Shown: positions 43,203 to 63,053 of the stretch, in pieces
Numbering within the stretch: position 1 is the stretch's first letter
How the letters are laid out: each line of letters begins with the position of its first letter
DNA from: Pararhodobacter marinus
GTDB taxonomy: Bacteria > Pseudomonadota > Alphaproteobacteria > Rhodobacterales > Rhodobacteraceae
DNA: 64,000 nt
Assembly (NCBI RefSeq): GCF_003122215.1
Contig: NZ_QEYD01000005.1
Location: 1-64,000 of the forward strand
Reading direction: 5' to 3'
The notes under the pieces: generated by a model
What the model saw: the letters and a program-made list of their open reading frames with translations, nothing else
Database searches by the model: none
What the model was told of the DNA's origin: nothing
Translations under genes and position numbers: made by a program

Positions 43203-44297
43203 ATGCCCCTCATCCAACTCGACGATCCCGATACGACGCTGGCGATGCTGCGCGACAGCGTCGCCGCTCTGGCCGCCCGCGCCGATGGCCCGGCCACCTT
43301 CCGCCGCCGCCGCGCCGCGCAGGGCGACCTCGATGCCGCGACCTGGAGCGCGCTGGCCGAGGCCGGGTTTCTGGCCCTGACCCTGCCCGAAAGCATGGGC
43401 GGGATGGGGCTGGGCGACAGCGAGCTGACCGTTCTGGCCGAGGCGCTGGGCCGGTCGCTGCTGACCGAGCCCTTCGCCAATCTCGCCGTGTTTCCGACCA
43501 CGCTGCTGCGCGAGATCGACGCCTCCGACGCGGCGACGGGGCTGGCGGTCGATATCGGCTCGGGCGAGGCCATCGTGCCGGTTTTGTGGCAGGATGCGCG
43601 CGGGGCAGCCGCGCCGCTGACGCTGTCGGGCGACCGGCTCAACGGCAGTGCGCATCTGGTGCCGGGCGCGGTTTCGGCCACCGGGTTCCTCGTTCTCGCC
43701 GAAGAGGGCGGCGATCTGGCGCTGGTGCATCTGGCTGCCGGGGCCGAGGGGATGCGTGTGGCCACGCGGCCCGGTCTGGATGGCGCGGTGCTGGGGCAGG
43801 TGACGCTGCACGATACCCCTGCCGCAACCGTGCTGGCGCGCGGCGCGGGGGTGCAGGCGGCGCTTGATGCGGCAATTGCCACCACGCGCATGGCGCTGGC
43901 GGCGGAACTGGCCGGGCTGGCCGCGCGGGCGCTGGAAATTACCGTGGATTACACCTCGAACCGGGTGCAGTTCGGCAAGTCCATCGCCAGCTTTCAGGCC
44001 ATCCAGCACCGGCTTGTCGATATGTGGGCCGAGGCGGAATTCGCCTGTTCGGCCTGCGCCAATGCCGCCATCGCCCCTGCGGGAGAACGCGCGCAGGCGA
44101 TCCTTGCCGCCAAGGCCCGCGCCGGGGACAGCGCCACCTCGATCACCCGCAAGGCCATCCAGCTTCACGGCGCGATGGGCTTCACCGACCAATGCGATAT
44201 CGGCCTGTACCTCAAGCGCGCGATCACCCTGAACGCGACGTTGGGCCAACCCGAAGAGCTGCGGCTGGCCTTCCTGACCGCCGACCGCGCCGCCTGA
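43203..44297 (+). CDS. acyl-CoA dehydrogenase family protein, likely beta partner of a heteromeric enzyme
   Basis: 364 residues. MRDSVAALAARADGPATF... GFLALTLPESMGGMGLGDSELTVLAEALGRSLLTEPF and the C-terminal half TVDYTSNRVQFGKSIASFQAIQHRLVDMWAEAEFACSACANAA and AIQLHGAMGFTDQCDIGLYLKRAITLNATLG. The usual catalytic Glu in the last helix region (YEG-type) is not present. Short ACADs of this kind pair with a longer ACAD to form alpha2beta2 enzymes in degradation of bulky CoA esters. The likely partner is at 45088. CCGGAGG precedes ATG 43203. Confidence 0.82.
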   Translation: MPLIQLDDPDTTLAMLRDSVAALAARADGPATFRRRRAAQGDLDAATWSALAEAGFLALTLPESMGGMGLGDSELTVLAEALGRSLLTEPFANLAVFPTTLLREIDASDAATGLAVDIGSGEAIVPVLWQDARGAAAPLTLSGDRLNGSAHLVPGAVSATGFLVLAEEGGDLALVHLAAGAEGMRVATRPGLDGAVLGQVTLHDTPAATVLARGAGVQAALDAAIATTRMALAAELAGLAARALEITVDYTSNRVQFGKSIASFQAIQHRLVDMWAEAEFACSACANAAIAPAGERAQAILAAKARAGDSATSITRKAIQLHGAMGFTDQCDIGLYLKRAITLNATLGQPEELRLAFLTADRAA

Positions 44298-44308
44298 AAG
44301 GAATTCCG

Positions 44309-45088
44309 ATGAGAAACGACCTGATCAAGACCGAGATCACCGACCACGTCGCCGTCGTCACCATGGACGCGCCGCCCGTGAACGCGCAGTCGCGCGGCTT
44401 CATGGAAGAGCTGATCGAGGTCTTCGACGAATTGAACGAAACGCCGGGCGTGCGCTGCGTGGTGCTGACGGGGAACGGCAAATGCTTCTCGGCGGGCGCC
44501 GATATCAAGTCGCGCGCCAAGGTCGCGGACGGGGTCGCGGGCGACACCTATCGCCATCTGCGCCGTGCGCGCGAGGTGGGCTTCGTCATCATGGAGATGA
44601 ACGTCCCCGTCATTGCCGCCGTCAATGGCCCGGCTCTGGGCGCGGGGATGGGGCTGGCGATCTGTTCGGACATGATCGTCGCGTCAACAAACGCGGTGTT
44701 CGGCCTGCCCGAGATCGATATCGGCCTGATGGGCGGCGTGCGCCACACGATGCGGGTGTTCCCCATGTCGCTGACGCGCCGCATGGTGCTGACCGGCTGG
44801 CGCGTTCCGGCAGCCGAACTCTATCGCCGGGGCCTGATCGAGGCCTGCGTCGAGCCCGAGGCGCTGATGGATACGGCGATGGAGTTGGCCCGCAACATCG
44901 CTTCGAAAAGCCCCGCGGCGATCCGTCTGGCCAAGCGCGCGCTCAACACCGTGGAAACGATGGGCCTGAAGGACGGCTACCGGTTCGAGCAGAACCTGAC
45001 GGTCGAGATGACCCGCCATCCCGACAGCAAGGAAGCAATGCGCGCCTTCATGGAAAAGCGCCCGGCGGTTTTCGGGGACGAGCTGTGA
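44309..45088 (+). CDS. enoyl-CoA hydratase/isomerase
   Basis: 259-residue crotonase: VVLTGNGKCFSAGADIKSRAKVADG, VAAVNGPALGAGMGLAICSDMIVASTNAVFGLPEIDIGLMGGVRHTMRVFPMSLTRRMVLTG, with the Glu of FGLPEIDIGL in place. AAAGGAATTCCG precedes the ATG. Its stop shares one base with the start of the next ACAD (TGATG). It hydrates the enoyl-CoA made by the surrounding dehydrogenases. Confidence 0.87.
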   Translation: MRNDLIKTEITDHVAVVTMDAPPVNAQSRGFMEELIEVFDELNETPGVRCVVLTGNGKCFSAGADIKSRAKVADGVAGDTYRHLRRAREVGFVIMEMNVPVIAAVNGPALGAGMGLAICSDMIVASTNAVFGLPEIDIGLMGGVRHTMRVFPMSLTRRMVLTGWRVPAAELYRRGLIEACVEPEALMDTAMELARNIASKSPAAIRLAKRALNTVETMGLKDGYRFEQNLTVEMTRHPDSKEAMRAFMEKRPAVFGDEL

Positions 45089-46272
45089 TGAAGTCCGCGA
45101 CGATGCCCGAACAACAGGACTGGAACGCGCTGACGGACGAGGAATTCCGCGCGATCTTCCGGGACTGGGTGGATCAGAACTGCCCCGCCCATCTGCGCTT
45201 CATGCGCAAGCAGCGGCCCGTCTTCGACGAGGTGGCCGAGTGGTATCACGCGCTGGCGCGCAAGGGCTGGCTCTCGCCGGTCTGGCCGCAGGAACATGGC
45301 GGCATGGGCCTGAATGCCGCGAAGCATATCGTTTATGTCGAGGAATGGGCGCGGCTGGGCTGCCCGCGTATTCCCGATCACGGCATCGGCCTGACCGGCC
45401 CCCTGCTGATCGAATTCGGCACCGATGAACAGAAGGAGTTCTTCCTGCCGCGCATCCTGTCAGGCGAGCATGTCTGGTGTCAGGGCTATTCCGAACCCAA
45501 TGCGGGTTCGGATCTGGCCAGCCTGCGGACCTCGGCGGTGCGTGAGGGTGACGAATTCGTCGTCAACGGCCAGAAGATCTGGACCACGCTGGCGCATTGC
45601 GCGAACTGGATCCTGCTTCTGGCGCGCACCGACAAGGAGGCTGCGAAGCCACAGGGCGGAATCACCGTGCTGCTGGTCGATCTGACCTCTCCCGGTGTGG
45701 TCGTGCGCACCATCCCCAACCTGCGCGAAGAGGCCGATTTCTGCGAGGTCTTCTTCGACAATGTCCGCGTGCCCGCGAAGAACGTTGTGGGCGAGGTCAA
45801 TGCGGGCTGGGCGCTGGCCAAGGCAGTGCTGGGGCATGAGCGGATCTTCCTCGGCGCGCCCTCGCGGCCCGAATACGCGCTCACGCGGCTGGAAATGCTG
45901 GCCGAGGATCGCGGCGCATTCGAGGATGCCGCCTTCCGTTCACGCTTCGCCAAGCTGCGGCTCGATCTCTACGACCTTGGCTCGGCCTTCGAGCGGTTTG
46001 CGAAGGTGCTGCGCGAAGGCGGTACGTTGGGCGCCGATGTCTCGGTGCTGAAGCTCTTCTGCACCGAACTCTATCAGCGCATCACCGAGGAAACGCTGGC
46101 CGTCGCGGGCGAGGAAGCGCGCTTCTACGACGACCTGCCCCTGGGCGATGGCGGTCATGTCGACGCGATGAACCTGTTCCTTGATGCGCGCGCGCCGGCG
46201 ATTTTCGGCGGGTCCAACGAGATCCAGCGCAACATCCTTGCCAAGGCCGTTCTCGGCCTTCCGTCACGGTGA
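45088..46272 (+). CDS. acyl-CoA dehydrogenase, likely alpha partner
   Basis: 394 residues. The FAD/substrate core is CQGYSEPNAGSDLASLRTSAVREGDEFVVNGQKIWTTLAHCANWILLLARTD, and the C-terminal FGGSNEIQRNILAKAVLGLPSR takes the position where medium-chain ACADs carry YEG; here it is FGG, as in heteromeric ACADs such as FadE26/FadE28. The N-terminus WYHALARKGWLSPVWPQEHGGMGLNAAKHIVYVEEWARLGCPRIPDHG is typical of that group. It and the short ACAD at 43203 probably make one alpha2beta2 enzyme flanking the hydratase gene. Confidence 0.85.
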   Translation: MKSATMPEQQDWNALTDEEFRAIFRDWVDQNCPAHLRFMRKQRPVFDEVAEWYHALARKGWLSPVWPQEHGGMGLNAAKHIVYVEEWARLGCPRIPDHGIGLTGPLLIEFGTDEQKEFFLPRILSGEHVWCQGYSEPNAGSDLASLRTSAVREGDEFVVNGQKIWTTLAHCANWILLLARTDKEAAKPQGGITVLLVDLTSPGVVVRTIPNLREEADFCEVFFDNVRVPAKNVVGEVNAGWALAKAVLGHERIFLGAPSRPEYALTRLEMLAEDRGAFEDAAFRSRFAKLRLDLYDLGSAFERFAKVLREGGTLGADVSVLKLFCTELYQRITEETLAVAGEEARFYDDLPLGDGGHVDAMNLFLDARAPAIFGGSNEIQRNILAKAVLGLPSR

Positions 46273-46277
46273 GCGCG

Positions 46278-47022
46278 ATGGGCGAATACGCACTCGAAGC
46301 GCAGGGTCTGACCAAGACCTTCGGCGGGTTCAACGCGGTCACGGACGTGAACCTCAAGGTCCGGCGCGGATCGATCCACGCGCTGATCGGCCCCAACGGG
46401 GCGGGCAAGACCACCTGTTTCAACCTGCTGACCAAGACCCTGACGCCCACGTCGGGCAAGGTGTTTCTGGATGGGCGCGACATCACCCGGTTGCGCAGCG
46501 CGCAGGTGGCGCGACAGGGGCTGGTGCGCAGCTTTCAGATCTCGGCCACCTTCCCGCATCTGACCTGTCTGGAAAACGTGCGCGTCGCGCTGCAATCGAA
46601 CCATGGCACTGCCTACAAGTTCTGGCGCTCGCTCAAGGCGGTCTCGGCGCTCAATGAGCGCGCGCATGAATTGCTGGGGCAGGTCGGGCTGGGCCATCAG
46701 GCGCACACGCCCGCGACCGAGCTGAGCTATGGCAAGAAGCGCGCACTGGAAATCGCCACGACGCTGGCGCTGGATCCCAAGGTGATGCTGCTCGACGAGC
46801 CGACAGCGGGGATGGGCCACGAGGATATCGAGCCGATCACCGACCTGATCCGCAAGGTTTCGGACGGGCGCACGATCCTGATCGTCGAGCACAATCTCTC
46901 GGTCGTCTCGAGCCTGTGCGAGCGCATCACCGTGCTGCAGCATGGCGAAGTGCTGTGCGAGGGAGCCTATGCCGAGGTGTCGAACGATCCCGAGGTGATC
47001 ACCGCCTATATGGGAGGGATCG

Positions 47023-47030
<8 letters not shown>
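46278..47030 (+). CDS. LIV-type ABC transporter ATP-binding protein (LivG-like)
   Basis: 250 residues. Walker A GPNGAGKTT, signature LSYGKKRALEIATTLALDPKVMLLDEPTAGMG and Walker B, and the LivG-specific HLTCLENVRVAL stretch. ATG at 46278 has GGTGAG upstream; a GTG at 46269 that overlaps the ACAD stop (GTGA) is an alternative start adding three residues. It ends in an 8-base overlap with livF. It energises uptake of the cargo bound by the periplasmic protein encoded at 56185. Confidence 0.92.
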
Positions 47031-47727
<697 letters not shown>

Positions 47728-47730
47728 GCG

Positions 47731-48615
47731 ATGTTCGATCACATCTCGATCCAGCTTTTGCTGGGACAATTGCTGATCGGCCTGATCAACGGGTCGTTCT
47801 ACGCCATGCTCAGCCTGGGGCTGGCGATCATCTTCGGCCTGATCCATGTCGTGAACTTCGCCCATGGCGCGCAATACATGCTGGGGGCCTTCGTGGCGCT
47901 CCTGCTGCTGAACCATCTGGGCATTCCCTATTGGGGCGCGCTGTTCATCGCCCCGGTGGTGGTGGGGGCGGTCGGATTGCTGATGGAGCAGACGATCCTG
48001 AAACCGCTCAGGCATCTCGATCACCTCTACAGCCTGCTCGCCACCTTCGCGGCGGTGCTGATCATGGAGGGGCTGATGCGGCTGGAATTCGGCTCGACCG
48101 GGTTGCCCTATGCCTCGCCGCTTCCCGGCGGCATCAATCTGGGCTTCATGTTCCTGCCCTGGTACCGGGGCTGGGTCGTCGTCTTCTCGCTGGTCGTCTG
48201 CATCGCGACATGGCTGCTGATCGAAAAGACCAAGCTTGGCGCCTATCTGCGCGCGGCCAATGAACGGCCCGAGATCGTCGAAAGTTTCGGCATCAACGTG
48301 CCCCGCATGATGAGCCTGACCTATGCCTTTGGCGTGGGGCTGGCGGGTCTGGGCGGGGTGCTGGCAGCCCCGATCTATCAGGTCTCGCCCTCGATGGGGT
48401 CGAACCTGATGATCGTCATCTTTGCCGTGGTGGTGATCGGCGGCATGGGCTCGATCCTGGGGGCGATCCTGACGGGCTATCTGATCGGCATCGTCGAGGG
48501 GCTGACCAAGGTCTTTTATCCCGAGGCCTCGAACCTCGCGATCTTCGTCATCATGATCGTCGCCCTGATCCTGCGGCCCAATGGCCTGTTCTCTTCGCCG
48601 GAGTCGTCCAGATGA
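47731..48615 (+). CDS. LIV-type ABC transporter permease (LivH-like)
   Basis: 294 residues with eight membrane segments: LLGQLLIGLINGSFYAMLSLGLAIIFGLIHVVNFAHGAQYMLGAFVALLLL and FAVVVIGGMGSILGAILTGYLIGIVEGLTKVFYPEASNL are classic LivH features. Three bases after livF; its stop overlaps livM (ATGA). Forms the channel together with the LivM-like subunit. Confidence 0.93.
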   Translation: MFDHISIQLLLGQLLIGLINGSFYAMLSLGLAIIFGLIHVVNFAHGAQYMLGAFVALLLLNHLGIPYWGALFIAPVVVGAVGLLMEQTILKPLRHLDHLYSLLATFAAVLIMEGLMRLEFGSTGLPYASPLPGGINLGFMFLPWYRGWVVVFSLVVCIATWLLIEKTKLGAYLRAANERPEIVESFGINVPRMMSLTYAFGVGLAGLGGVLAAPIYQVSPSMGSNLMIVIFAVVVIGGMGSILGAILTGYLIGIVEGLTKVFYPEASNLAIFVIMIVALILRPNGLFSSPESSR

Positions 48616-49538
48616 CGCGCTATATCCTGTTGGCCGTGCTGGCCGTCGTCGCGCTGATCGCGCCGTTCTTCGTCTATCCGATCCTGCTGATGACGATCCT
48701 GTGCTTCATGGTCTTCGCCTCCAGCTTCAATCTTCTCCTGGGTTATGCCGGGCTGTTGTGCTTCGGCCACGCGATGTTCTTCGGCGCCGGGGCCTATATC
48801 GGCGGCTGGCTGATGAAAGAGGGCGGATTGTCGATCGAGCTGGCCTTTCTGGGCGCCGCCCTGGCCATGGCCGCGCTGGGCTGGGTCGTCGGCCTGATCT
48901 CGGCCCGGCGGGGCGGTATCCAGTTCGCGATGATCACGCTGGCCATTTCGCAGTTCATCTACTTCCTGCTGCTGCGCGCGCCTTTCACGCATGGCGAGGA
49001 CGGGCTGCAGCGCATCCCGCGCTCGGACCTGTTCGGGGTGGTGGACGTGTCGTCGAACCTGTCGCTGTATTATCTGGTTCTGGCGGTGTCGGTCGCGGCG
49101 ATCTGGTTCTTCTACCGCATCGTGCATTCGCCCTTCGGCGAGGTGCTGCGCGCGATCCGCGACAACGAGGGGCGGATGGAATCGCTGGGTTTCGTGCCCG
49201 AGCGGTTCAAGATCCTGGCCCTGACGCTGTCGGCCGGTCTGGCGGGTCTGGCCGGGGCGATGAAAGCATCGGTTCTGCAAATCGCCACGCTGCACGACCT
49301 GTCGTTCCACGTCTCGGGCACGATCATCTTCATGGCGCTTCTGGGGGGATTGGGCACGCTGGCCGGCCCCATCGTCGGCGCGGCGCTGGTCGTGCTGCTG
49401 ACCGACCACCTGGCGCAGTTCGGGGAATGGGCGCTGATCATCCAGGGGAGTGTGTTCCTGGTGGTGATCCTGTTCTTCCGCCGCGGGCTGGTGGGCGAGT
49501 TGCAGGCCTTCCTCAAGCGCCGCGTTGCGCGGGCGTAA
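48612..49538 (+). CDS. LIV-type ABC transporter permease (LivM-like)
   Basis: 308 residues, about nine membrane segments: MVFASSFNLLLGYAGLLCFGHAMFFGAGAYIGGWLM and FALTLSAGLAGLAGAMKASVLQIATLHDLSFHVSGTIIFMALLGGLGTLAGPIVGAALV, both LivM landmarks. Last gene of the operon, before a strong bidirectional terminator. The binding protein is encoded separately 6.6 kb downstream. Confidence 0.93.
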   Translation: MTRYILLAVLAVVALIAPFFVYPILLMTILCFMVFASSFNLLLGYAGLLCFGHAMFFGAGAYIGGWLMKEGGLSIELAFLGAALAMAALGWVVGLISARRGGIQFAMITLAISQFIYFLLLRAPFTHGEDGLQRIPRSDLFGVVDVSSNLSLYYLVLAVSVAAIWFFYRIVHSPFGEVLRAIRDNEGRMESLGFVPERFKILALTLSAGLAGLAGAMKASVLQIATLHDLSFHVSGTIIFMALLGGLGTLAGPIVGAALVVLLTDHLAQFGEWALIIQGSVFLVVILFFRRGLVGELQAFLKRRVARA

Positions 49539-49581: not shown

Positions 49582-49992
49582 TCAGTCCAGCGCGACGACG
49601 GCCTCGACCTCGAACAGCATCGACGGAAGGGCGAGGGCCGGGACCCCGACCAGCGTCTGCGCCGGCATCCGATCTCCGAAAATCGTGATCACCGCCTCGG
49701 TCATCGGGCCCAGCTTCGACGGGTCGTGATCGACCACATAGGTGGTCAGCTTGACGACCCGCTCGGGCCCAGCGCCCAAGCCTTCCAGCGCCGTGCGCAG
49801 ATTGTCATAGGCCTGCCGGACCTGCCCGACGAAATCCGGAGACAGCGCGCCGGTGTGATCCTGCCCCCCTTGTCCCGAAATGAAGGCAAGCCGCGCCGAA
49901 GCCGGTGCGATCACGGCGGTGCTGTAGCCATTCGGGCTGGGATCGGGCAGCGGCGCGGGGTTGACGATCTGCGGCAAGGTATTGGCTTTCAT
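49582..49992 (-). CDS. RidA/YjgF-family protein (noncanonical subgroup)
   Basis: 136 residues: NGYSTAVIAPASARLAFISGQGGQDHTGALSPDFVGQVRQAYDNLRTALEGLGAGPERVVKLTTYVV and RMPAQTLVGVPALALPSMLFEVEAVVALD. Gln112 takes the place of the catalytic Arg of RidA deaminases, placing it in the Arg-less Rid subgroups. ATG at 49992 follows an AGGAGAAT site. It is divergent from a WYL regulator gene across 87 bases with an inverted repeat, so the two probably form a regulatory unit. Confidence 0.85.
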   Translation of the reverse strand: MKANTLPQIVNPAPLPDPSPNGYSTAVIAPASARLAFISGQGGQDHTGALSPDFVGQVRQAYDNLRTALEGLGAGPERVVKLTTYVVDHDPSKLGPMTEAVITIFGDRMPAQTLVGVPALALPSMLFEVEAVVALD

Positions 49993-50040
49993 GGCGAATT
50001 CTCCTGTGTCCTGAGGGCGACACAATGGATAGCCAGAATC

Positions 50041-50079: not shown

Positions 50080-50805
50080 ATGAACTCCCGCGCCCGTCAG
50101 GATCACCTGATCCGCCATCTTCGCCGCAACGGCCTCACCACGAGCGAAACGCTGGCCCAAGCGGTCGGCACCTCGCGCCGCACGGTGCTGCGCGACCTGT
50201 CCTGCCTGCGTGACGAGGGCTACCTGATCCATTCCGAGCCCGGTCCGGGGGGCGGCTTGCTGCTTGATCCGCAGGCCGCGCGCTCTGGGCCGCGGCTGTC
50301 GGTCAGCGAGGTCTTCGCGCTGATCGTCACCGTTTCGGCAATGCAGATCGCGCGGGATGTGCCCTTTGCCGAGCTGGCCGATACGGGCCTTGCCAAGATC
50401 GAGAAAAGCCTTTCGGCCGATCAACTGCGCGACCTGCGCGCCTTGCTGGAGGGGCTGCATGTGGGCCGGCTGTCGCCCTTGCAGGATCTGTCCGACCGGG
50501 ACGCGATGGACCCGGCCCTGCTGCCTTGCTTCGAGGCAGGCTTCCTGGACCGTCAGCCGATCCGCTTTGCCTATCGCGATGCCAAGGGCAACCAGACCCG
50601 ACGACAGGTCGAGCCGCAGGCCATGCTGATCCTGCCGCCCCTGTGGTATCTGGTCGGCTGGGATCCTGAAAAGGGCGACTTTCGCCACTTTCGCATGGAC
50701 CGGATCGCGCGGCCCGAGATTGTCCCCGGACCGCCCTTCCGTCGCCGCCGCGTGCCCTTCGAGGCCGATGTCTGTCCGTTCACGGAGCTGACGCGTCAAC
50801 CTTGA
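50080..50805 (+). CDS. YafY/DeoR-like HTH regulator with WYL domain
   Basis: 241 residues. N-terminal HTH_11: RQDHLIRHLRRNGLTTSETLAQAVGTSRRTVLRDLSCLRDEGYLIHSEPGPGGGLLLDP. C-terminal WYL domain: PIRFAYRDAKGNQTRRQVEPQAMLILPPLWYLVGWDPEKGDFRHFRMDRIARPEI, with WYL visible in PLWYLVGWD. WYL domains sense nucleic acid ligands or small molecules. Its last 26 bases overlap the convergent acyl-CoA ligase gene. Probably controls the Rid gene. Confidence 0.9.
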   Translation: MNSRARQDHLIRHLRRNGLTTSETLAQAVGTSRRTVLRDLSCLRDEGYLIHSEPGPGGGLLLDPQAARSGPRLSVSEVFALIVTVSAMQIARDVPFAELADTGLAKIEKSLSADQLRDLRALLEGLHVGRLSPLQDLSDRDAMDPALLPCFEAGFLDRQPIRFAYRDAKGNQTRRQVEPQAMLILPPLWYLVGWDPEKGDFRHFRMDRIARPEIVPGPPFRRRRVPFEADVCPFTELTRQP

Positions 50806-54304: not shown

Positions 54305-54318
54305 TTCACATCCGTGAA
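54305..54318. promoter_or_regulatory. TTCACA-N2-CGTGAA site upstream of the monooxygenase gene
   Basis: TTCACA-TC-CGTGAA, one mismatch from the perfect IclR-type palindrome, 148 bases before the monooxygenase ATG and 31 bases after the iclR stop. Confidence 0.6.
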
Positions 54319-55157: not shown

Positions 55158-55171
55158 TTCACAAGTGTGAA
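55158..55171. promoter_or_regulatory. TTCACA-N2-TGTGAA palindrome between iclR and the SDR/binding-protein operon
   Basis: TTCACA-AG-TGTGAA, perfect 6-bp arms, 30 bases before iclR. The gap to the SDR ATG at 55377 is 248 bases; no gene fits there. Confidence 0.65.
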
Positions 55172-55376: not shown

Positions 55377-56135
55377 ATGAAGGGCAGACTGGCCAGCCGG
55401 GTCGCTCTGGTAACGGGCGGAGGTCGCGGAATCGGCCGCGCGATCAGCGAGGCCTATGCACGGGAAGGGGCGAAGGTCGCGGTTCTCGACCTGAAGCTCG
55501 ACGTGGCCGAGGAATGCGCCGGGGCGATCCGCGCGGCGGGCGGCGAGGCGATGGCGGTGCAGGCGAATGTCGCCGACCGCGAGGACGTCTTCACCGCCGC
55601 GGCCAAGGTGAAACACGCATTCGGCCCGGTCACGGTGCTGGTCAACAACGCGATGTACAACCGCTATGGCCCGCTCGACGATCAGACCGAACCGATGATC
55701 AGCCGGATGATCGACGTGGGCTTCAAAGGCGTGATCTGGGGATATCAGGCCTGCGTGCCGCAGATGCGCGAGGCGGGGGGCGGCGTGATCGTCAACATCG
55801 CCTCGCCCTCGGCTGTTCTGGCGATGAAGAATGGCATCATGTACTCGGCCATCAAGGCCGCGGTCGCCGCCGCGACCCGTTCGGGCGCGGCGGAATACGG
55901 CCCCGACAATATCCGCGTCACCGCCATCGCGCCGGGACCGACGCAGACCGACGGGGCCAACATGGTCGTTAGCGAAGAGGGTTGGGAAAGGCGCCGGCAA
56001 CGGATGCCCATCGGACGGCTGGGACAGCCCTCTGACATGGCAAACGCGGCTGTGTTTCTGGCATCGGACGACGCGTCCTTTGTCACGGGCGACATGCTGT
56101 TTGTGGATGGAGGCGTGACCTACGCCTTCTCGTGA
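55377..56135 (+). CDS. SDR oxidoreductase of the IclR island
   Basis: 252 residues: VALVTGGGRGIGRAISEAYAREGAKVAVLDLKLDVA (NAD-type Asp), NNAMYNRYG in place of NNAG, Ser in NIASPSAVLAM, YSAIK. AGGAAAGGAAG precedes ATG 55377. It probably oxidises an alcohol to the ketone that is the monooxygenase substrate, though order of action is inferred only from the neighbourhood. It is followed after 49 bases by the binding-protein gene. Confidence 0.85.
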   Translation: MKGRLASRVALVTGGGRGIGRAISEAYAREGAKVAVLDLKLDVAEECAGAIRAAGGEAMAVQANVADREDVFTAAAKVKHAFGPVTVLVNNAMYNRYGPLDDQTEPMISRMIDVGFKGVIWGYQACVPQMREAGGGVIVNIASPSAVLAMKNGIMYSAIKAAVAAATRSGAAEYGPDNIRVTAIAPGPTQTDGANMVVSEEGWERRRQRMPIGRLGQPSDMANAAVFLASDDASFVTGDMLFVDGGVTYAFS

Positions 56136-56184: not shown

Positions 56185-57405
56185 ATGACGATGAACGCAA
56201 CCGGCGCCACGGCGCTGTTTCTGGCCTGCACCGCGCTGAGCGCCGCGCCGGCCTGGGCCGATTTCTCGGACGATGTGATCCGCATCGGCGTGATGAACGA
56301 CCAGTCGGGTCCCTATGCCGACAATTGCGGCGCGGGATCGGTGGCTATGGTGCGGCTGGCCATCGAGGACCATGGCGGCGCGATCAACGGCGTGCCGATC
56401 GAAGTGGTGGTCGCCGACGATCAGAACCAGCCCGATGTCGGCGTCTCGGCCGCGCGCCGCTGGGTCGAGGAAGAGGGCGTCGACACCATCGTCGGCTGCT
56501 CGGCCTCGTCCATCGCGCTGGCCGTGCAGGACGTGATGCGCCAGCACGAGCGCCCCTACCTGATCGCCGGCACCGCGACGACGGAGACGACCAACGGCCA
56601 GTGTTCGCCCATGACCACCAACTGGGCCTATGACACCTACACGCTGGCCCGCGGTTCGGTGAATGCGCAGATCGAGCAGGGCAATCTGAGCTGGTATTTC
56701 ATCACCGTCGATTACACCTTCGGCCATGCCTGGCAGGATGACGCGACGCGTTTCATCGAAGCGGCGGGCGGCGAGGTCCTGGGCTCGACCCTGCATCCGC
56801 TGGGCGCCACGGACTTCTCGTCGCAGCTGCTGCAGGCGCAGGCCAGCGGCGCGCAGGTGATCGGCATCGCCAATGCGGGCGCCGACCTTGCCAACGTCAT
56901 CAAGCAGGCCGAGGAATTCGGCATCGTCGCCGCCGGTCAGCAGATCGCCCCGCTGGGCGCGCAGGTGAACAACATCCACGGCATCGGCCTGCCGGCGACG
57001 CAGGGGCTGGTCTTCTCGGCCGCCGCCTATTGGGACCGCGACGACGAGACGCGCGCGCTGACCGAACGCTACAACGCCGCCTTCGACGGTCGCTATCCCA
57101 ACGAGTCGCAGCTGGTGACCTATTCGGCGGTCAACCACTACCTGACCGCGCTGGAAGCGATCGGCACGGATGAAGGCGTTGCGGTCATGGATCAGATGCG
57201 CGCCACGCCGGTCAACGATCCGATCATGCAGGACGTGTCGATCCGTGAAGACGGCGTGGTCATGCATCCGATGCTGATGGTGCAGGTCAAGACGCCCGAG
57301 GAATCGACGGGCGACTGGGATTACTACGACGTTCTGGGCCTGATCCCCGCCGAGGACTCGTGGCGCACCCGCGAGGAAAGCAGCTGCCCGCTCTTCACCG
57401 AATAA
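56185..57405 (+). CDS. LIV-type ABC transporter substrate-binding protein
   Basis: 406 residues with a Sec signal (ATALFLACTALSAAPAWA-D, cleavage about residue 25). Type I periplasmic fold: IRIGVMNDQSGPYADNCGAGSVAMVRLAIEDHGGAINGVPIEVVVADDQNQPDVGVSAARRWVEEEGVDTIVGCSAS and GAQVIGIANAGADLANVIKQAEEFGI. Such proteins bind aromatic or alicyclic acids as often as leucine. The partner permease genes are at 46278-49538 and no other orphan set is visible here. A strong terminator follows, consistent with high expression. Confidence 0.92.
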   Translation: MTMNATGATALFLACTALSAAPAWADFSDDVIRIGVMNDQSGPYADNCGAGSVAMVRLAIEDHGGAINGVPIEVVVADDQNQPDVGVSAARRWVEEEGVDTIVGCSASSIALAVQDVMRQHERPYLIAGTATTETTNGQCSPMTTNWAYDTYTLARGSVNAQIEQGNLSWYFITVDYTFGHAWQDDATRFIEAAGGEVLGSTLHPLGATDFSSQLLQAQASGAQVIGIANAGADLANVIKQAEEFGIVAAGQQIAPLGAQVNNIHGIGLPATQGLVFSAAAYWDRDDETRALTERYNAAFDGRYPNESQLVTYSAVNHYLTALEAIGTDEGVAVMDQMRATPVNDPIMQDVSIREDGVVMHPMLMVQVKTPEESTGDWDYYDVLGLIPAEDSWRTREESSCPLFTE

Positions 57406-57470: not shown

Positions 57471-58379
57471 ATGACAGCCCAATCCGCCGCCAAGATCGTC
57501 GCAACCCGCGTCGTGGCGACGCCCGACATGCTGGGTGAAAGCCCGCTTTGGGACGAACGCCGCCAGCGGCTTTACTGGGTCGACGGCGTCTCGCGCCTGA
57601 TCCGGTTCCACGACCCTGCCACCGACAGCACCGGCCAGTGCGAGACGCCCTCGACCGTGGGCTCGATCGGCCTGTGCGAAGACGGGCGCCTGATCGCCGG
57701 GCTGGTGGACGGCTTCTATCTTGTCGATCCCGACAAGGGCGCGGTGACGCCCTTCCTGATCCCCCCGCGCAACGAGAAAATGCGCTTCAACGACGGCAAG
57801 GTCGACCGGCAGGGCCGTTTCGTCTGCGGCGGCATGGGCGTCTTTGCCGATCCGGTGGGCGAGCTGTGGCGCATAGACGGCGCGGGCCATTCCGAGATCC
57901 TGGCCAACGGCATCCGCATCGCCAATGCGCTGTGTTTCAGCCCTGACGGCGGCACGATGTATTTCGCCGACAGCCTGGACCGCTTCGTGCGCGCCTATGA
58001 TTACGACAATGGCGAGCTGTCGCGCCCGCGTGTCTTTGCCGATACGCAGCAATTCAATTCCGGTCCCGACGGCGCGACGGTCGATGCCGAGGGGCATGTC
58101 TGGGTAGCGCTGGTCAATGTGGGCAAGCTGGCCCGCTTCACCCCCTCGGGCAAGCTGGAGCGGCTGCTCGAAGCGCCGACCGACATGCCAAGCTGCCCGG
58201 CTTTCGGCGGGCCGGACCTGTCGACGCTTTATGTCACCTCGATCAAGGACAGCGGTTCGGGGCGCGCGATCTCGCGCCATCCACAGGGCGGGCATCTGTT
58301 CGCCATCGACGGGCTGGGCATCAGGGGCCTGGCCGAACCGCGCATGAAACTGACCCTTTCGGAGACCCCCGATGTCTGA
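57471..58379 (+). CDS. SMP-30/gluconolactonase-family lactonase
   Basis: 302-residue six-bladed beta-propeller. Metal-site signatures are GESPLWDERRQRLYWVD (Glu), EKMRFNDGKVDRQGRFVCGGMG, IRIANALCFSPDGGTMYFADS (Asn and Asp). The family hydrolyses lactones, often sugar lactones. Placed next to a Baeyer-Villiger-type monooxygenase it could open the lactone that enzyme makes. Its last eight bases overlap the next gene. Confidence 0.87.
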   Translation: MTAQSAAKIVATRVVATPDMLGESPLWDERRQRLYWVDGVSRLIRFHDPATDSTGQCETPSTVGSIGLCEDGRLIAGLVDGFYLVDPDKGAVTPFLIPPRNEKMRFNDGKVDRQGRFVCGGMGVFADPVGELWRIDGAGHSEILANGIRIANALCFSPDGGTMYFADSLDRFVRAYDYDNGELSRPRVFADTQQFNSGPDGATVDAEGHVWVALVNVGKLARFTPSGKLERLLEAPTDMPSCPAFGGPDLSTLYVTSIKDSGSGRAISRHPQGGHLFAIDGLGIRGLAEPRMKLTLSETPDV

Positions 58380-60462
58380 CGCTTTCGACGCCCTGTTCGC
58401 CCCGCAAAGCGTGGCGCTGGTCGGTGCCTCGGACGATGCCTCGCGCATCGGCGGGCGCCCGCTGCGCTATCTGCGCGAGGGCGGGTTCAAGGGCCGCGTG
58501 CTGCCGGTGAACCCCAAGCGCGAGACGGTGCAGGGTCTGCAAGCCTATGCCGCCATCGCCGATCTGCCCGAAGTGCCCGATACCGCGATCCTGGCGCTGC
58601 CCGCCTCGGCCACGCTGAAAGCGGTCGAGGATTGCGCGGCGCGGGGAGTGAAATCCGCCATGATCTTTTCGGCGGGTTTCGCGGAGACTGGCGCCGAGGG
58701 CGAAGCTCTGCAGGCCCGGCTGACGGCTACCGCGCGCGAAGCGGGGATGCGGCTGCTGGGGCCGAATTGTCTGGGCGTGTTCAACCCGGCCCTGGGCTAT
58801 TACGGGACGTTCAGCGTGATCCTCGACACCGCGCTGATCGCGCCGGGCCCGGTGGGTATCGTGTCGCAATCGGGGGCTTACGGCGCGCATATCGCGCATC
58901 TGGCGCGCAACCGGGGCCTTGGCATCAGCCAGTGGATCACCACCGGGAACGAGGCCGATATCGACGTGGCCGAGGCGCTGAGCCATATGGTCCGTCAGCC
59001 CGATACCCGCGTGGTCATGGCCTATGCCGAAGGGGTGCGCGACCGCGACCTGTTCATCGACGCGCTGGAAACCGCGCGGCAATTGCACAAGCCCATCGTC
59101 TTCATGAAGACCGGGCGCTCGGCGGTGGGGGCGGCGGCGGCGGCTTCGCATACCGCGGCGCTGGCCGGGTCGGACGGGGTGTTCGATGCGGTCCTGCGCC
59201 AATACGGCGTGCACCGCGCCGCGACCACGGCCGAGCAGATCGACGTGGCCTATGCTGCCGCCTCGGGGCGTTTCCCGGCGGGGGACAAGGTGGGGATCTT
59301 CACCATGTCGGGGGGCTTTGGCATCCAGCTGGCCGACGATGCCGAGGCGGCGGGGCTTGATGTCTCGCCCATGCCCGAGGCTGCGCAAAAAGAGCTTCTG
59401 GCGCTCTTGCCCTATGCCGCGCCGCGTAATCCCGTGGATGCGACGGCGCAGGCGGTGAGCGATCTCGACGTGCTTAAGGCCTGCGTGCGCCCGATGATGG
59501 CGCAGGGCGGCTACGATGTGTTTACCGCGATCCTCGGGACCGGGCCGGGCTCGAAAACCTATGCCGATCCGCTGAGGAAGGCGCTGATGGAGGCGCTGGC
59601 GGGGCACGAGGATCGCATCCGCGCGCTGACGATGTCGGCCCCGGTCGAGGCCGTGCGCCGCTACGAGGCCGACGGGTTCCTTGTCTACGAGGACGGCTCG
59701 GCGCTGGCCCATGCGCTGGGCGCGTTGGCAAAGTTCCGGCGGGCATTCGAGCGGCCCGCATCGGCCCCGGCGCCGATGGCGCCGCTGGCCTTGCCGCAGG
59801 GGCCGCTGTCGGAAGCGGGTGCCAAGGCGCTGTTGCGGCAGGCGGGCCTGCGCTTTGCCGACGAAGAACTGGCCGCGACGTCTGATGCGGCGGTCGCGGC
59901 GGCCGACAGGCTGGGTTACCCGGTCGTGGCGAAGATCTGCTCGCCCGACATCGCCCACAAGACCGAGATCGGCGGCGTGGCGGTGAACCTGAAGGACGCG
60001 CAGGCGGTCCGCGCGGCGACCGAGGCCATCCTGGCCCGCGCGAACGCCAAGGCGCCGGACGCCCGGATCGAGGGCGTGCTGATCGCGCCCATGGTGCAGG
60101 GCGGGGTCGAGACCATCGTTGGCGTCACCCGCGATCCGGTGCTGGGCCCGGTGGTGATGTTCGGGCTGGGGGGCATTTTTGTCGAGGTGCTGAAAGACGT
60201 GACGTTCCGCGCCGCCCCTTTCGACGTGCCCGAGGCCCATCGCATGATCCGCGAGATCCGGGGATTCCCGCTGCTGGAAGGCGCGCGCGGGGCCGAGCCC
60301 GCCGATATCGACGCGCTGGCGCGGCTTCTGTCGGACCTGTCGCGCTTTGCCGCCGCGCATCGCGACGGGGTGATCGGCATCGACCTGAACCCCGTGCGCG
60401 TGCTGCCAAAAGGTCAGGGCGTCATCGCGCTGGACGCGCTTATCGAACTGGAGGCCTCATGA
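58372..60462 (+). CDS. ADP-forming-type acyl-CoA synthetase (ACD/pimeloyl-CoA-ligase-like)
   Basis: 696 residues in the single-chain order CoA-binding domain ([48 protein letters not shown]), succinyl-CoA-synthetase-like domain ([53 protein letters not shown] with phosphorylatable His), and an ATP-grasp domain ([59 protein letters not shown]). It joins CoA to an acid with ATP to ADP, and in catabolic loci it activates the acid from ring cleavage. It is coupled to the lactonase gene. Confidence 0.88.
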
Positions 60463-60983
60463 CCGATCTTGCCACCCGGGTGCAGGAATTGATGGACCGC
60501 GAGGCGATCCGCGATTGCCTGTACCGCTATTGCCGGGGCATCGACCGCGCCGACGAAGCGGCGTTGCGCGCATCCTACTGGCCCGATGCGACCGACCGGC
60601 ACGGCCCCTATTCCGGCCCTGTCGAGGGGTTTATCGACTGGGCCAGGAAGGTCTGGGCGACGGGGCCGCGCAATATCCATGTGGTCTCGAACATCCTCAT
60701 CGAATTCACCGGGCCCGATGGCGCGCAGGTCGAAAGCTACTTCACCGCCCATCAGCGCGGGGCGGGGGCCGATAGCGTGGTGCGGCAGGTGATGCTGATC
60801 GGGCGCTATTGCGACCGGTTCGAGAAACGCGGCGCGGAATGGCGCGTGGCCGAGCGTGTCGTGGTCTATGACTGGGCCGAGGATCAGCCGGTGCCCGAGG
60901 GCAGCGAGGCCGAGCGTTTCGGCGCGCGCCAGCCCATCGGCGGCGCCTATCCCGACGATCCCGTCTACCGGAAGCCCGCATGA
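60459..60983 (+). CDS. SnoaL-like (NTF2 fold) protein
   Basis: 174 residues: [66 protein letters not shown] has the SnoaL_4 start and [31 protein letters not shown] the following strands. His and Asp in the [20 protein letters not shown] segment fit the family pocket. SnoaL-like proteins include dehydratases, ring isomerases and hydroxylase subunits, so a role beside the monooxygenase route is plausible but not definable. ATGA overlaps at both ends. Confidence 0.82.
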
Positions 60984-61507
60984 CCCGCCGTTCCGATCCC
61001 GGTGCAGGAAAGACCGCCCCCGATGCCGTTTCGGTCGACGATTACAAGACCGCGATGCGCCACGTCGTCTCGCCGGTGGTGGTCGTGACATGGCTTCACG
61101 ACGGCAAGCCCGAAGGACTGACCATCACGGCGATCTGCTCGGCCACGACCGAACCGCCGACGCTGGTGGTCTGCCTTCGCGGTGACAAGCCCGCCGCCGA
61201 GCGGATGCGCGCGGCGGGGCGCTTCGGGGTGAATTTCCTCAGCGACGAACAGCCCGATATTGCCCGACGGTTCTCGTCCAATCCGGGCCATGACGGCGAG
61301 GCTTTCGATCCCGGTCTGTGGACCGTCACGCCGGGCGGAGTGCCGCTTCTGGACCGCGCGGTCAGCCGCTTCGATTGCGTGGTCGAACAAGCCTTCGAGC
61401 AGGGCAGTCATGTCGTGTTTCTGGGCCGCGTGACTGATCTGGCCACGGCGCCGGGAGCCAGCCTGCTGTATCGCGACGGGTTCTTCCGTCGCCTGGGAAC
61501 GGAGTGA
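60980..61507 (+). CDS. flavin reductase (HpaC/DIM6-like)
   Basis: 175 residues: [81 protein letters not shown] is the FMN-binding split barrel, with the HEVFGRV-like end [12 protein letters not shown]. It supplies reduced flavin to two-component monooxygenases; no second component is near, because the monooxygenase at 52502 is self-contained, so it may serve another oxygenase. Starts by ATGA overlap. Confidence 0.87.
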
Positions 61508-61511
61508 CGCG

Positions 61512-63053
61512 ATGAGGCGGATTTCCCTTGTGACCGGCGCTGCCGGCGGTATCGGGCGGGCGCTGATCGCCGAGCTGTCCGGGCGCGGCGACCGGGTGAT
61601 CGCGGTCGACCTGCCGGGCAGCGGCGTGCTGGACCTGCCCGGTGTGACGGCCTTCGAATGCGACCTCTCGGACGAGCCGCAGATCCTGACCCTGTGGCGC
61701 ACGCTCGATGCGCTGGGGCTGGCGGTGGGGCTGCTGGTCAACAACGCCGCGATGGGGCCGACGATGGCGCCCACGACCCGGACCGATCTGGCGCATTTCC
61801 GGCTGACCTTGCGCACCAATGTGAACGGCCCGTTCCTGATGGCGCGCGAGGCCGCGCGGCGGATGCCCAAGGGCGGCGCGATCGTCAATACCGCCTCGCT
61901 GGCGGGCGTCCTGGGCAATCCCTGCCGCAATGCCTATGCGGCATCGAAAGCCGCGCTCATCTCGATGACGCGGTCGCTGGCCTGCGAATGGGCGGCGCGG
62001 GGGATCCGCGTCAATGCCATCGCGCCGGGCTATGTGCGCACGCCGATGGTCGCCGCGCTGGAAGCCGAGGGCAAGGCGGACCTGTCGGCCGTCCGCCGCC
62101 GCATCCCGATGGGGCGGCTCGCGCGCGCGGACGAGATGGCCTCGGCCATCGGGTTCCTGGGCTCGCCCGAGGCGCGCTACGTGACGGGGGCGATCCTGGG
62201 CGTGGATGGCGGCTGGATGTCGTTCAACCAGCCGGGCGACGCGCATCCCCCCGCCGACGCGGTCCCTGCCGCCGAGATCACGCGGCCCGCCGCTCCCGAG
62301 AGCCCGCGCCGCGTGGTCATTACCGGCGCCGGTACGGGGATCGGGGCGGCCATCGCCGCGCGGTTCCACGGCGGGGGCGATCATGTCGTCCTTCTGGACC
62401 GCGATGCCGAGGCGGTCGCCGCCCGGGCGGCCGAGCTGGGCGAGGGCGCACAGGCCATTCCCTGCGACGTGACGCGGGACGAAGAGATCGCCGACGCCTT
62501 CGCGCGGATCGGCGCCGTCGATGTGCTGGTCAACAATGCCGCCATCGCCGACCCGTTCACACCGGGGCTGGAGCAGGATTTCGCGGCGCTCGACCGGACC
62601 TTGTCGGTCAACCTGACCGGCGCTTTCGCCTGCGCGCAGGCGGCCATTCCGGCGATGACGGCGGGACGCGGGGTGATCGTCAATCTCGGCTCGATCGCGG
62701 GGCTCGTGCCGATGGCGCCGCGTCATCCCTATGGCGCGTCGAAGGCCGGGATCGACATCCTGACCCGCTGTCTGGCCGCCGAGCTGGGCCCCATGGGCCT
62801 GCGCACGGCCACCGTCGCACCGGGCTACATCCGCACGCCGGGCGTCGCCGCGCTGGAAGCGGACGGACGGGTCGACACCGCGCAGATCCGCCGCCGGATC
62901 CCGATGGGCGACCTGGGCCGCCCCGAGGATATCGCCGAAGCCGTGTTCTTCGTGGCGTCGCCGGCTGCCAGTTACGTCAACGGCACGCTTCTGAGCGTGG
63001 ATGGCGGCTGGAACGCCTTTGGCAGCGCCGGGGATGCCAGCGACAGGGCATGA
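61512..63053 (+). CDS. tandem SDR-SDR fusion oxidoreductase
   Basis: 513 residues with two full SDR domains joined by a Pro/Ala linker (about residues 240-265). Domain 1: VTGAAGGIGRALIAEL, NNAAMGP, Ser in NTASLAGVLG, YAASK, GVDGGW. Domain 2: VVITGAGTGIGAAIAARF, NNAAIAD, Ser in NLGSIAGLVP, YGASK, SVDGGWNAFG. Both have all catalytic residues and share the motif RRRIPMG, so they look like a duplicated FabG-like gene. It is last of the lactonase-SnoaL operon and might do two oxidations in one protein. Confidence 0.87.
   Translation: MRRISLVTGAAGGIGRALIAELSGRGDRVIAVDLPGSGVLDLPGVTAFECDLSDEPQILTLWRTLDALGLAVGLLVNNAAMGPTMAPTTRTDLAHFRLTLRTNVNGPFLMAREAARRMPKGGAIVNTASLAGVLGNPCRNAYAASKAALISMTRSLACEWAARGIRVNAIAPGYVRTPMVAALEAEGKADLSAVRRRIPMGRLARADEMASAIGFLGSPEARYVTGAILGVDGGWMSFNQPGDAHPPADAVPAAEITRPAAPESPRRVVITGAGTGIGAAIAARFHGGGDHVVLLDRDAEAVAARAAELGEGAQAIPCDVTRDEEIADAFARIGAVDVLVNNAAIADPFTPGLEQDFAALDRTLSVNLTGAFACAQAAIPAMTAGRGVIVNLGSIAGLVPMAPRHPYGASKAGIDILTRCLAAELGPMGLRTATVAPGYIRTPGVAALEADGRVDTAQIRRRIPMGDLGRPEDIAEAVFFVASPAASYVNGTLLSVDGGWNAFGSAGDASDRA

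What the first reader, a model, noticed from the sequence alone, without database searches (positions are those of the whole stretch)
43203..63053. Candidate undescribed pathway: IclR-controlled Baeyer-Villiger/lactonase/CoA island
The island combines LIV-type uptake, SDR, monooxygenase, SMP-30 lactonase, ADP-forming-type and AMP-forming CoA ligases, a heteromeric ACAD with hydratase, SnoaL-like protein, flavin reductase and a double SDR. Read together: import, oxidation to a cyclic ketone, conversion to lactone, opening to an acid, CoA activation and beta-oxidation. Known cyclohexanone or camphor clusters use different regulators and lack the heteromeric ACAD, the SnoaL and double SDR.
Basis: inference. 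Interest (0 to 1): 0.75.

Follow-up and report, generated by a model that had tools for sequence, protein, structure and literature searches.

The report
Three-operon ring-cleavage catabolic regulon
A bacterium carries a three-operon gene set, sharing one DNA control site, that looks built to import an unknown ring-shaped molecule, cut the ring open and burn the pieces; two of its genes have close relatives on plasmids of nitrogen-fixing legume symbionts, and its substrate is unknown.

Summary
The genes are there, and they form one unit. The window is from a Pararhodobacter-like genome. The island is three operons: (1) ACADa-ECH-ACADb-LivGFHM, (2) BVMO-AMP ligase, (3) SDR-LIV binding protein-SMP30-ADP-forming ligase-SnoaL-flavin reductase-double SDR, with a divergent iclR gene. 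A 14-bp palindrome, TTCACANNTGTGAA, stands before all three. At up to one mismatch the 4.49-Mb genome has six such places: these three, and three inside predicted reading frames. The sites recur in other Rhodobacterales genera, where the BVMO can lie inside operon 3 and the AMP ligase heads operon 1. Over set thresholds, partner genes surround relatives of this BVMO (e.g. SMP30 22/34 loci) and none of 27 control BVMOs. So the refutation condition 'not co-regulated' is answered as far as sequence can. Not shown: substrate, order of steps, Baeyer-Villiger activity. The BVMO clade lacks the fingerprint histidine in 29 of 30 rows (as do 4 of 9 other rows). Unexpected lead: SnoaL and the double SDR are close relatives (about 65-68% and 51-53%) of a conserved NTF2-SDR-LLM cassette on rhizobial plasmids, by nif genes in 3 of 5 regions viewed. 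My reading: an undescribed catabolic regulon of a known kind, with a side-chain CoA module plus a ring-opening module.

The parts
42991..43004 (.). operator palindrome TTCACACTTGTGAA (0 mismatches) before the ACAD-transporter operon
   Evidence: same place in L034-L036 (0 mismatches) and L044 (1 mismatch), and before the ACS-ACAD operon in three further genomes
43203..44297 (+). ACADa: acyl-CoA dehydrogenase subunit without a middle-domain match
   Evidence: Pfam; best solved relative Tcur3481 6wy8_A, E 1.6e-23; start
44309..45088 (+). enoyl-CoA hydratase/isomerase
   Evidence: Pfam ECH_1 5.2e-55
45103..46272 (+). ACADb: acyl-CoA dehydrogenase subunit with all three domains; HERI motif aligned to HERV of 4x28_A; start less clear
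46269..47030 (+). LivG-type ATPase
47023..47727 (+). LivF-type ATPase
47731..48615 (+). LivH-type permease
48612..49538 (+). LivM-type permease
49582..49994 (-). RidA-like protein (my reading of the translation, no library hit); accessory, not core
   Evidence: only L035 matched it among the loci
50080..50805 (+). HTH/WYL regulator; accessory insertion, found in L035 but not in L034, L036 or L044
50780..52420 (-). AMP-forming acyl-CoA ligase (PRK07008-like, below that model's cut-off)
52502..54157 (-). BVMO-like flavin monooxygenase, PAMO-related; fingerprint FxGxxxHxxxWP reads FKGLTLRAARWP
54305..54318 (.). operator palindrome TTCACATCCGTGAA (1 mismatch) before BVMO-AMP ligase
54349..55128 (-). 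IclR-family regulator
55158..55171 (.). operator palindrome TTCACAAGTGTGAA (0 mismatches) between iclR and the SDR operon
55377..56135 (+). SDR dehydrogenase (glucose-1-dehydrogenase-like name, PRK07231 above cut-off)
56185..57405 (+). LIV-type binding protein; closest solved 3i09, E 3.7e-98
57471..58379 (+). SMP-30/gluconolactonase-family lactonase; start less clear
58372..60462 (+). ADP-forming acyl-CoA ligase; closest solved 4-hydroxybutyrate-CoA ligase 8wzu
60459..60983 (+). SnoaL_4/NTF2 dehydratase-like protein, D29/H74 conserved
60980..61507 (+). flavin reductase (RutF/HsaB-like, below cut-offs)
61512..63053 (+). double SDR (two SDR domains), 51-53% to rhizobial y4vI-type SDR

Best explanation
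The island is one regulon of three operons, very probably repressed by its own IclR-type protein through the palindrome TTCACANNTGTGAA and induced by the substrate or an early intermediate. Shown by sequence: gene content, the three shared operators, and recurrence of the linkage in other genera and orders. Inferred mechanism: a carboxylated alicyclic compound (terpenoid- or steroid-ring-like, or an algal/plant product) is imported by the LIV-type transporter and joined to CoA by the AMP-forming ligase. Its side chain is shortened with the alpha2beta2-type acyl-CoA dehydrogenase and the hydratase. On the ring, the SDR and double SDR oxidise hydroxyls to ketones and the SnoaL protein eliminates water. 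The BVMO-like enzyme inserts oxygen next to the ketone to give a lactone, SMP30 opens the lactone, and the ADP-forming ligase (its gene overlaps that of SMP30) joins the freed hydroxy acid to CoA for beta-oxidation. The flavin reductase's partner is not known.
For: Operators: 3 in 64 kb at up to 2 mismatches, expected 0.60, one before each operon; genome-wide 6 places at up to 1 mismatch, control pattern 0, the other 3 inside predicted reading frames. An exact site stands before the ACAD operon in the own genome and in 4 of 4 other genomes searched that have the island (G098, G078, G206, G306); a same-genus genome without this BVMO (G296) has no exact site and two one-mismatch places. A site at up to 2 mismatches lies between iclR and SDR in 12 of 12 Rhodobacterales sequences scanned (6 exact, 2 with one, 4 with two mismatches; partly near-duplicates). 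Neighbourhood over set thresholds: clade BVMOs vs 27 controls, SMP30 22/34 vs 0, SnoaL 17/34 vs 0, ECH 20/34 vs 0, ACADa 12/34 vs 0. Of 562 plasmid records with an SMP30 match, the five listed first are exactly the five records with the best BVMO matches. ACAD subunits match partner chains of solved complexes (their steroid role recalled) and are one gene in Variovorax. SnoaL keeps the LinA-aligned Asp/His and its model is nearest to scytalone dehydratase-like, LinA and bile-acid dehydratase folds.
Against: No substrate, no activity, no expression data. The BVMO fingerprint His is replaced in 29 of 30 clade rows. Four clade loci (L040, L041, L042, L051) show none of the partners above the thresholds, so the BVMO clade is not tied to one pathway everywhere. 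Seven of the 29 sequences scanned show no operator (L043, L047, L062, L068, L069, L079, L080); L068 and L069 have TetR-type regulators in the stretch instead of IclR. The count of three in the window alone is modest: 3 of 100 shuffles reach it. Exact sites outside the island exist in G098 (2), G206 (1) and G078 (1), and the control pattern gave one place each in G306 and G078. That the IclR protein binds the palindrome is inferred from position. Among the 20 proteins scanned no thiolase was seen.
Confidence: 0.6

Rival explanations
1. Ring-first order: a neutral or simple alicyclic alcohol/ketone is oxidised, lactonised and opened, and only then activated to CoA and beta-oxidised by the heteromeric ACAD.
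For: Camphor and cyclohexanone logic (recalled); the SMP30 gene overlaps that of an ADP-forming ligase whose closest solved relative is a hydroxy-acid ligase; in Phenylobacterium locus L062 BVMO, SMP30 and both ACADs are contiguous.
Against: In G078, G206 and G306 the AMP ligase heads the ACAD-ECH-ACAD-transporter operon, suggesting CoA activation at import; two separate CoA ligases suggest two activation events.
Confidence: 0.25
2. The BVMO-like protein is not a lactone-forming Baeyer-Villiger enzyme here but oxidises an aromatic or linear ketone (ester formation) or another group, so the pathway handles an aryl ketone or similar compound and SMP30 acts as an esterase or on another intermediate.
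For: Fingerprint His lost in 29 of 30 clade rows, and Arg-Arg in place of Lys-Arg by the active-site Arg in 30 of 30; closest solved enzymes are phenylacetone and steroid monooxygenases, which act on side-chain or linear ketones (recalled); a BVMO/hydrolase route opens the quinone ring in Sphingobium AntQ-1 (passages of PMC9836352).
Against: SMP30-family lactonase linkage in 22 of 34 clade loci; no aromatic ring-cleavage dioxygenase among the 20 proteins scanned; 4 of 9 BVMO rows outside the clade also lack the His, so its loss says little by itself.
Confidence: 0.2
3. SMP30 and the glucose-1-dehydrogenase-like SDR form an ordinary sugar or polyol lactone module that merely neighbours the monooxygenase.
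For: Family names and sugar-lactone activity of many SMP-30 enzymes (recalled); Arg and Asn of the RFND motif, shared with regucalcin, are kept in 16 of 16 rows.
Against: Shared operators and operon; linkage absent over threshold in 27 control loci; the SMP30s listed first among 562 plasmid records are those of the BVMO-clade records.
Confidence: 0.05
4. The island is a biosynthetic or modification cluster rather than a catabolic one.
For: PtlE-type BVMOs in antibiotic synthesis give the best NCBIfam match, far below cut-off (299 vs 1100 bits).
Against: LIV-type uptake genes, two ACADs, ECH and two CoA ligases in the same regulon; no scaffold synthase among the proteins scanned.
Confidence: 0.05

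Closest known systems
Camphor (CAM plasmid) pathway of Pseudomonas putida
   Same: Ketone formation, BVMO ring opening, CoA activation, beta-oxidation; two-component luciferase-like plus FAD-type BVMOs in one organism resembles Pseudosulfitobacter and relatives (L038, L070), which have both kinds side by side (the family of the L037 homologue).
   Different: Window has no P450 or luciferase-like BVMO in the island and no close LLM relative in the genome; IclR not TetR (CamR recalled); adds SMP30, SnoaL, double SDR, LIV transporter and alpha2beta2-type ACAD. Pathway details partly recalled; starts of abstracts of camphor papers seen in the listing.
Cyclohexanone (chn) and cyclopentanone (cpn) clusters
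   Same: Dehydrogenase-BVMO-lactone hydrolase order of chemistry (recalled).
   Different: Those use alpha/beta-hydrolase lactonases and other regulators and have no ACAD or transporter module (recalled).
Rhizobial plasmid cassette NTF2-SDR-LLM (NGR234 y4vH-y4vI-y4vJ, names recalled), sometimes with P450 and ferredoxin
   Same: SnoaL about 65-68% identical in the rhizobial rows listed, double SDR 51-53% over full length; its LLM is 56-61% identical to the LLM beside the Pseudosulfitobacter, SP17 and W027 clusters.
   Different: No type I BVMO, SMP30 or ACAD in the five stretches viewed; nif genes in view in 3 of 5; function not found in the searched library. NGR234 y4vI passes the PRK06484 cut-off (839 vs 713 bits), the window protein does not (610).
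Anthraquinone cluster of Sphingobium AntQ-1 (PMC9836352; passages read)
   Same: BVMO plus lactone hydrolase pairs open a ring; type II and type I BVMOs proposed to act in sequence.
   Different: Type I enzyme reported with both canonical fingerprints; alpha/beta-hydrolase and monoterpene epsilon-lactone hydrolase; catechol and phthalate downstream.
Phenylacetone and steroid monooxygenases (1w4x, 4aos)
   Same: Closest solved relatives, E 1.1e-165 and 3.5e-152; active-site Arg aligned.
   Different: Fingerprint His is Arg; Lys-Arg is Arg-Arg.

Membership tests
Type I Baeyer-Villiger monooxygenase | Two Rossmann GxGxxG motifs | tested here: met
   GAGFGG and GTGSSG in the translation
Type I Baeyer-Villiger monooxygenase | Fingerprint [A/G]GxWxxxx[F/Y]P[G/M]xxxD (as given in PMC9836352) | tested here: met
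   GGVWYWNRYPGARCD; the pattern holds in 30 of 30 clade rows
Type I Baeyer-Villiger monooxygenase | Fingerprint FxGxxxHxxxW[P/D] | tested here: not met
   FKGLTLRAARWP: His is Arg; clade rows R 16, L 9, Y 4, H 1; 4 of 9 rows outside the clade also lack it. I therefore call it BVMO-like, not a canonical member
Type I Baeyer-Villiger monooxygenase | Lactone or ester formation from a ketone | not testable with these tools
   no assay
SMP-30/gluconolactonase | SGL domain over cut-off; metal-ligand Glu, Asn, Asp (positions recalled) | tested here: met
   PF08450 264 bits; the three residues kept in 16 of 16 aligned rows
alpha2beta2 heteromeric acyl-CoA dehydrogenase | Two different ACAD subunits in one operon, each matching a different chain of one solved complex | tested here: met
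   6wy8 A/B and 4x28 D/A; 4x28_D is only fourth for ACADa
alpha2beta2 heteromeric acyl-CoA dehydrogenase | Physical complex | not testable with these tools
   no biochemistry
ADP-forming acyl-CoA synthetase | CoA-binding, Succ_CoA_lig and ATP-grasp_5 domains in one chain | tested here: met
Scytalone dehydratase/LinA-like SnoaL_4 eliminase | NTF2 fold with the Asp/His pair aligned to LinA D25/H73 (numbers and roles recalled) | tested here: met
   D29 and H74 invariant in 13 of 13 aligned, aligned to LinA Asp and His; model pLDDT 83.7, top folds 3ef8 and LinA, bile-acid 7-alpha dehydratase at rank 11
IclR regulator of the island | HTH_IclR and IclR_C domains; conserved palindrome at its own divergent promoter | tested here: met
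IclR regulator of the island | Protein binds the palindrome | not testable with these tools
   inferred from position
Camphor-type pathway | Luciferase-like type II BVMO present | tested here: not met
   best own-genome matches to the L037 LLM are 28-35% over part of the protein
Camphor-type pathway | P450 hydroxylase for the substrate | not tested
   none in the island; rest of genome not searched for P450

The most novel reading that the evidence does not exclude
An undescribed catabolic regulon for a plant- or alga-derived alicyclic (terpenoid- or steroid-like) acid, centred on a BVMO clade that has dropped the fingerprint histidine; its SnoaL-double SDR core handles the same class of compound as the P450-ferredoxin-NTF2-double SDR-LLM cassette kept on rhizobial symbiotic plasmids, so solving the substrate here would also reveal an unknown nodule-linked pathway.
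Probability: 0.3. Interest if true: 0.8.

Novelty: new variant of a known kind. Interest (0 to 1): 0.6.

Why it matters
It turns a list of genes into a defined regulon with a predicted operator, so the inducer can be found by a simple reporter screen. It gives natural context to a BVMO clade without the accepted fingerprint, links SMP-30 lactonases to likely non-sugar catabolism, and connects to a cassette of unknown function found on many rhizobial plasmids.

Tried and rejected
Sugar-lactone module by chance next to a monooxygenase: rejected for co-regulation. WYL regulator as the controller: the operators persist in L034, L036 and L044, where no WYL gene was found. Flavin reductase as partner of a luciferase-like BVMO in the genome: no close LLM relative in the own genome, and the reductase beside the LLM in L038 and L070 is only about 30% identical to the window's. 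NifA-type sites before the rhizobial cassette: one TGT-N10-ACA match in L083, about 1.25 kb upstream and inside an annotated gene, none in the stretch searched of L082, where one weak -24/-12-like string lies inside an annotated gene (genes); not convincing. Extra operator sites elsewhere: the G098 C49 tandem lies between two gene ends; a 5'-nucleotidase-like gene in G206 and a TonB receptor in G078 follow exact sites; not claimed as regulon members. Other matches away from the island promoters (L040 three, L046, L070 position 981, L078 two, L081 position 5633) were not followed up. Genes at 39654-42965 as part of the island: no match in the Pararhodobacter loci, which end soon after.

Limits: thresholds were set after seeing the data, and weaker, shorter or more distant matches beside lower-identity BVMOs exist (e.g. 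in L024, L057, L058). Controls are 7 lower-identity loci plus 20 of the 24 lower-identity places; four control stretches were cut by contig ends. L068-L071 were taken with wider flanks (12-16 kb) than the rest (about 10 kb). Some clade loci are near-duplicates (L038/L039/L070) and L036 is genome G098 by coordinates. L067 was dropped (no full BVMO); short, BVMO-less or double-counting loci were left out beforehand, including L078, which carries the full partner set. The ranking uses the tool's own order (coverage times identity). One search scanned 29 of the sequences held, not all.

Full report
What the window is. The window is contig 26 of a 4.49-Mb genome in 30 contigs. The closest named loci are Pararhodobacter aggregans, Pararhodobacter sp. 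CCB-MM2 and a RHODO2 MAG at 90-91% BVMO identity, and P. zhoushanensis at 89%, so it is a Pararhodobacter-like member of the Rhodobacterales.

Anatomy. Operon 1 (plus strand) is ACADa 43203, ECH 44309, ACADb 45103, two LIV ATPases and two LIV permeases, with overlaps or short gaps. Operon 2 (minus strand) is the BVMO-like gene 54157-52502 followed by the AMP-forming ligase from 52420. Operon 3 (plus strand) starts at SDR 55377 and runs through the LIV binding protein, SMP30, ADP-forming ligase, SnoaL, flavin reductase and double SDR to 63053; SMP30/ligase, ligase/SnoaL and SnoaL/reductase overlap by 4-8 bases. That these are operons is inferred from spacing. iclR (55128-54349) is divergent from operon 3. 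A RidA-like gene (my reading of the translation) and a WYL regulator sit between operons 1 and 2; they were found in L035 but not in L034, L036 or L044, so they are accessory.

One operator for three operons. Comparing the iclR-SDR gaps of 11 Rhodobacterales sequences shows a palindrome TTCACA-NN-TGTGAA. In the 64-kb window, up to two mismatches, it occurs three times against 0.60 expected; 3 of 100 shuffles reached three. So the count alone is modest; the places are what matter: 42991 before operon 1, 54305 before operon 2, 55158 before operon 3. In the whole genome there are six palindrome places at up to one mismatch and none for the control pattern; both exact sites are in this island, and the three places outside it lie within predicted reading frames. 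In L034, L035, L036 and L044 the same three places carry it, and in Pseudooceanicola (L066) there are sites beside iclR/SDR, before BVMO, and between the AMP ligase and an old-yellow-enzyme-type reductase. Of 29 sequences scanned, 12 of 12 Rhodobacterales sequences with the iclR-SDR pair have a site in that gap (6 exact, 2 with one mismatch, 4 with two; partly near-duplicates). The Sphingopyxis, Sphingomonas, Sphingomonadales and Novosphingobium loci L050, L052, L063, L064 and L071 have a two-mismatch form, ATCACATATGTGAT, before their iclR. L043, L047, L062, L068, L069, L079 and L080 have none. In G098, G078, G206 and G306 an exact site stands before the ACAD operon; a same-genus genome without this BVMO, G296, has no exact site. 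Against a fully private operator: exact sites outside the island occur in G098 (2), G206 (1) and G078 (1), and the control pattern gave one place each in G306 and G078. That IclR is the binder is inferred.

Linkage beyond the species. In Pseudosulfitobacter H46 and genomes G078, G206 and G306 the BVMO lies in the same co-directional run as SDR-SBP-SMP30-ligase-SnoaL-reductase, and in G078, G206 and G306 the AMP ligase heads the ACAD-ECH-ACAD run (with LivG after it where the stretch reaches, G078 and G206). Comamonas antarctica and Variovorax PBL-E5 plasmids carry BVMO, SMP30, LIV transporter, ACADs, ECH and both ligases; in Variovorax both ACAD parts fall in one annotated gene. Sphingomonas, Sphingopyxis, Phenylobacterium and Novosphingobium loci carry subsets. 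Against 27 control loci with BVMOs below 51% identity, partners over set thresholds are: SMP30 22/34 vs 0/27, SnoaL 17/34 vs 0/27, ECH 20/34 vs 0/27, ACADa 12/34, ACADb 15/34, AMP ligase 11/34, ADP ligase 14/34, double SDR 9/34, IclR 20/34 and SDR 23/34, all 0/27 in controls (limits told under Tried and rejected). Four clade loci (L040, L041, L042, L051) have none. In plasmids, the first five of 562 SMP30 records in the tool's order are the five records with the best BVMO matches. The clade is rare: 5 of 390 order genomes at 66% or more, the window's own included; in the wider draws only the own genome of 385 and the own genome plus G1040 of 398 passed E 1e-175.

The enzymes. The BVMO-like protein is closest to phenylacetone monooxygenase (1w4x, E 1.1e-165) and steroid monooxygenase. 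It keeps both Rossmann motifs and the first fingerprint but reads FKGLTLRAARWP where the second fingerprint needs His; in 30 clade rows the residue is Arg 16, Leu 9, Tyr 4, His 1, and RR stands for KR at the active-site Arg in 30 of 30. Neither change is private to the clade: of 9 rows outside it, 4 also lack the His and 2 have RR. I therefore treat it as BVMO-like. The two ACADs match partner chains of solved alpha2beta2 enzymes, which act in steroid breakdown (recalled), hinting at a bulky ring substrate. The ADP-forming ligase is nearest to 4-hydroxybutyrate-CoA ligase among solved structures, fitting a hydroxy acid from lactone opening. SnoaL aligns D29 and H74 with the LinA pair, invariant in 13 of 13; its model (pLDDT 83.7) is nearest to scytalone dehydratase-like and LinA structures, with bile-acid 7-alpha-dehydratase also high, so an elimination is likely. 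The flavin reductase has no obvious partner: the genome holds no close relative of the luciferase-like monooxygenase found beside related clusters.

A link to legume symbionts. The window SnoaL matches 173 plasmid records at E up to 1e-20, 147 of them at 60-80% identity; by name 86 Rhizobium, 54 Sinorhizobium, 8 Mesorhizobium, and smaller numbers of Sphingobium, Variovorax, Streptomyces and others. The double SDR at E up to 1e-90 matches 61 records: 37 Rhizobium, 15 Sinorhizobium, 8 Mesorhizobium, 1 Agrobacterium; weaker matches were not asked for. In 5 of 5 regions viewed the order is NTF2-SDR-LLM, with a P450 in 3 and a neighbouring ferredoxin in 2, and nif genes in view in 3 (flanks of 6-12 kb). 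The double SDRs are 51-53% identical over their length, and the rhizobial LLM is 56-61% identical to the LLM beside Pseudosulfitobacter, SP17 and Sulfitobacter W027 clusters. A table in PMC8197338 (passages read) lists CYP127A3 for testosterone hydroxylation; that CYP127 is the P450 of this cassette is recalled. I found no paper on the cassette's function.

How it most likely works. Two modules under one operator: an import and side-chain CoA module (operon 1 plus AMP ligase) and a ring module (SDRs, SnoaL, BVMO-like enzyme, SMP30, ADP-forming ligase). Content, shared operators and linkage are shown; co-regulation, order, substrate and activities are inferred.

Known or new. No cluster with this set was found in the library (listings and starts of abstracts seen; passages of PMC9836352, PMC8305402, PMC8197338 and PMC6946804 read). 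The logic is that of known BVMO pathways; the enzyme set, regulator and BVMO clade are not, as far as I could find, so I call it a new variant of a known kind.

Noticed in passing
window 30438-37701: Separate cluster: bifunctional salicylyl-CoA 5-hydroxylase/oxidoreductase (PRK08255, 1280.6 bits over cut-off 1078), ECH, ACAD and benzoate-CoA-ligase-like enzyme; a known kind of aromatic-CoA pathway.
   Followed up: partly
L082, L083, L088, L089, L090: Conserved NTF2-double SDR-LLM cassette on rhizobial plasmids, with P450 in 3 and nif genes in view in 3 of 5 regions; function unknown to the searched library.
   Followed up: partly
L084 11478-29335 and L070 14231-29052: A second, LLM-type cluster (LLM, flavin reductase, ADP ligase, ACAD pair, ECH, TTT transporter) that can lie next to the BVMO island (L070) or occur without a BVMO in the stretch viewed (L084).
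   Followed up: partly
G1040 contig 9, L078 and L079: Two clade BVMOs about 22 kb apart, with SnoaL, double SDR, ECH, ligase, ACAD pair and SMP30 between them.
   Followed up: no
L041 and L042 (Mesorhizobium MAGs): BVMO of this clade (64-65%) beside a glycerophosphate-oxidase-like DAO gene and ABC ATPases, without the other partners over threshold.
   Followed up: no
L037, L040, L066: Old-yellow-enzyme-type reductase with the same operator palindrome upstream; a likely extra regulon member in these genomes.
   Followed up: partly
window 63078-63971 (-): Histidine-kinase ATPase domain followed by a response-regulator domain, directly after the island.
   Followed up: no
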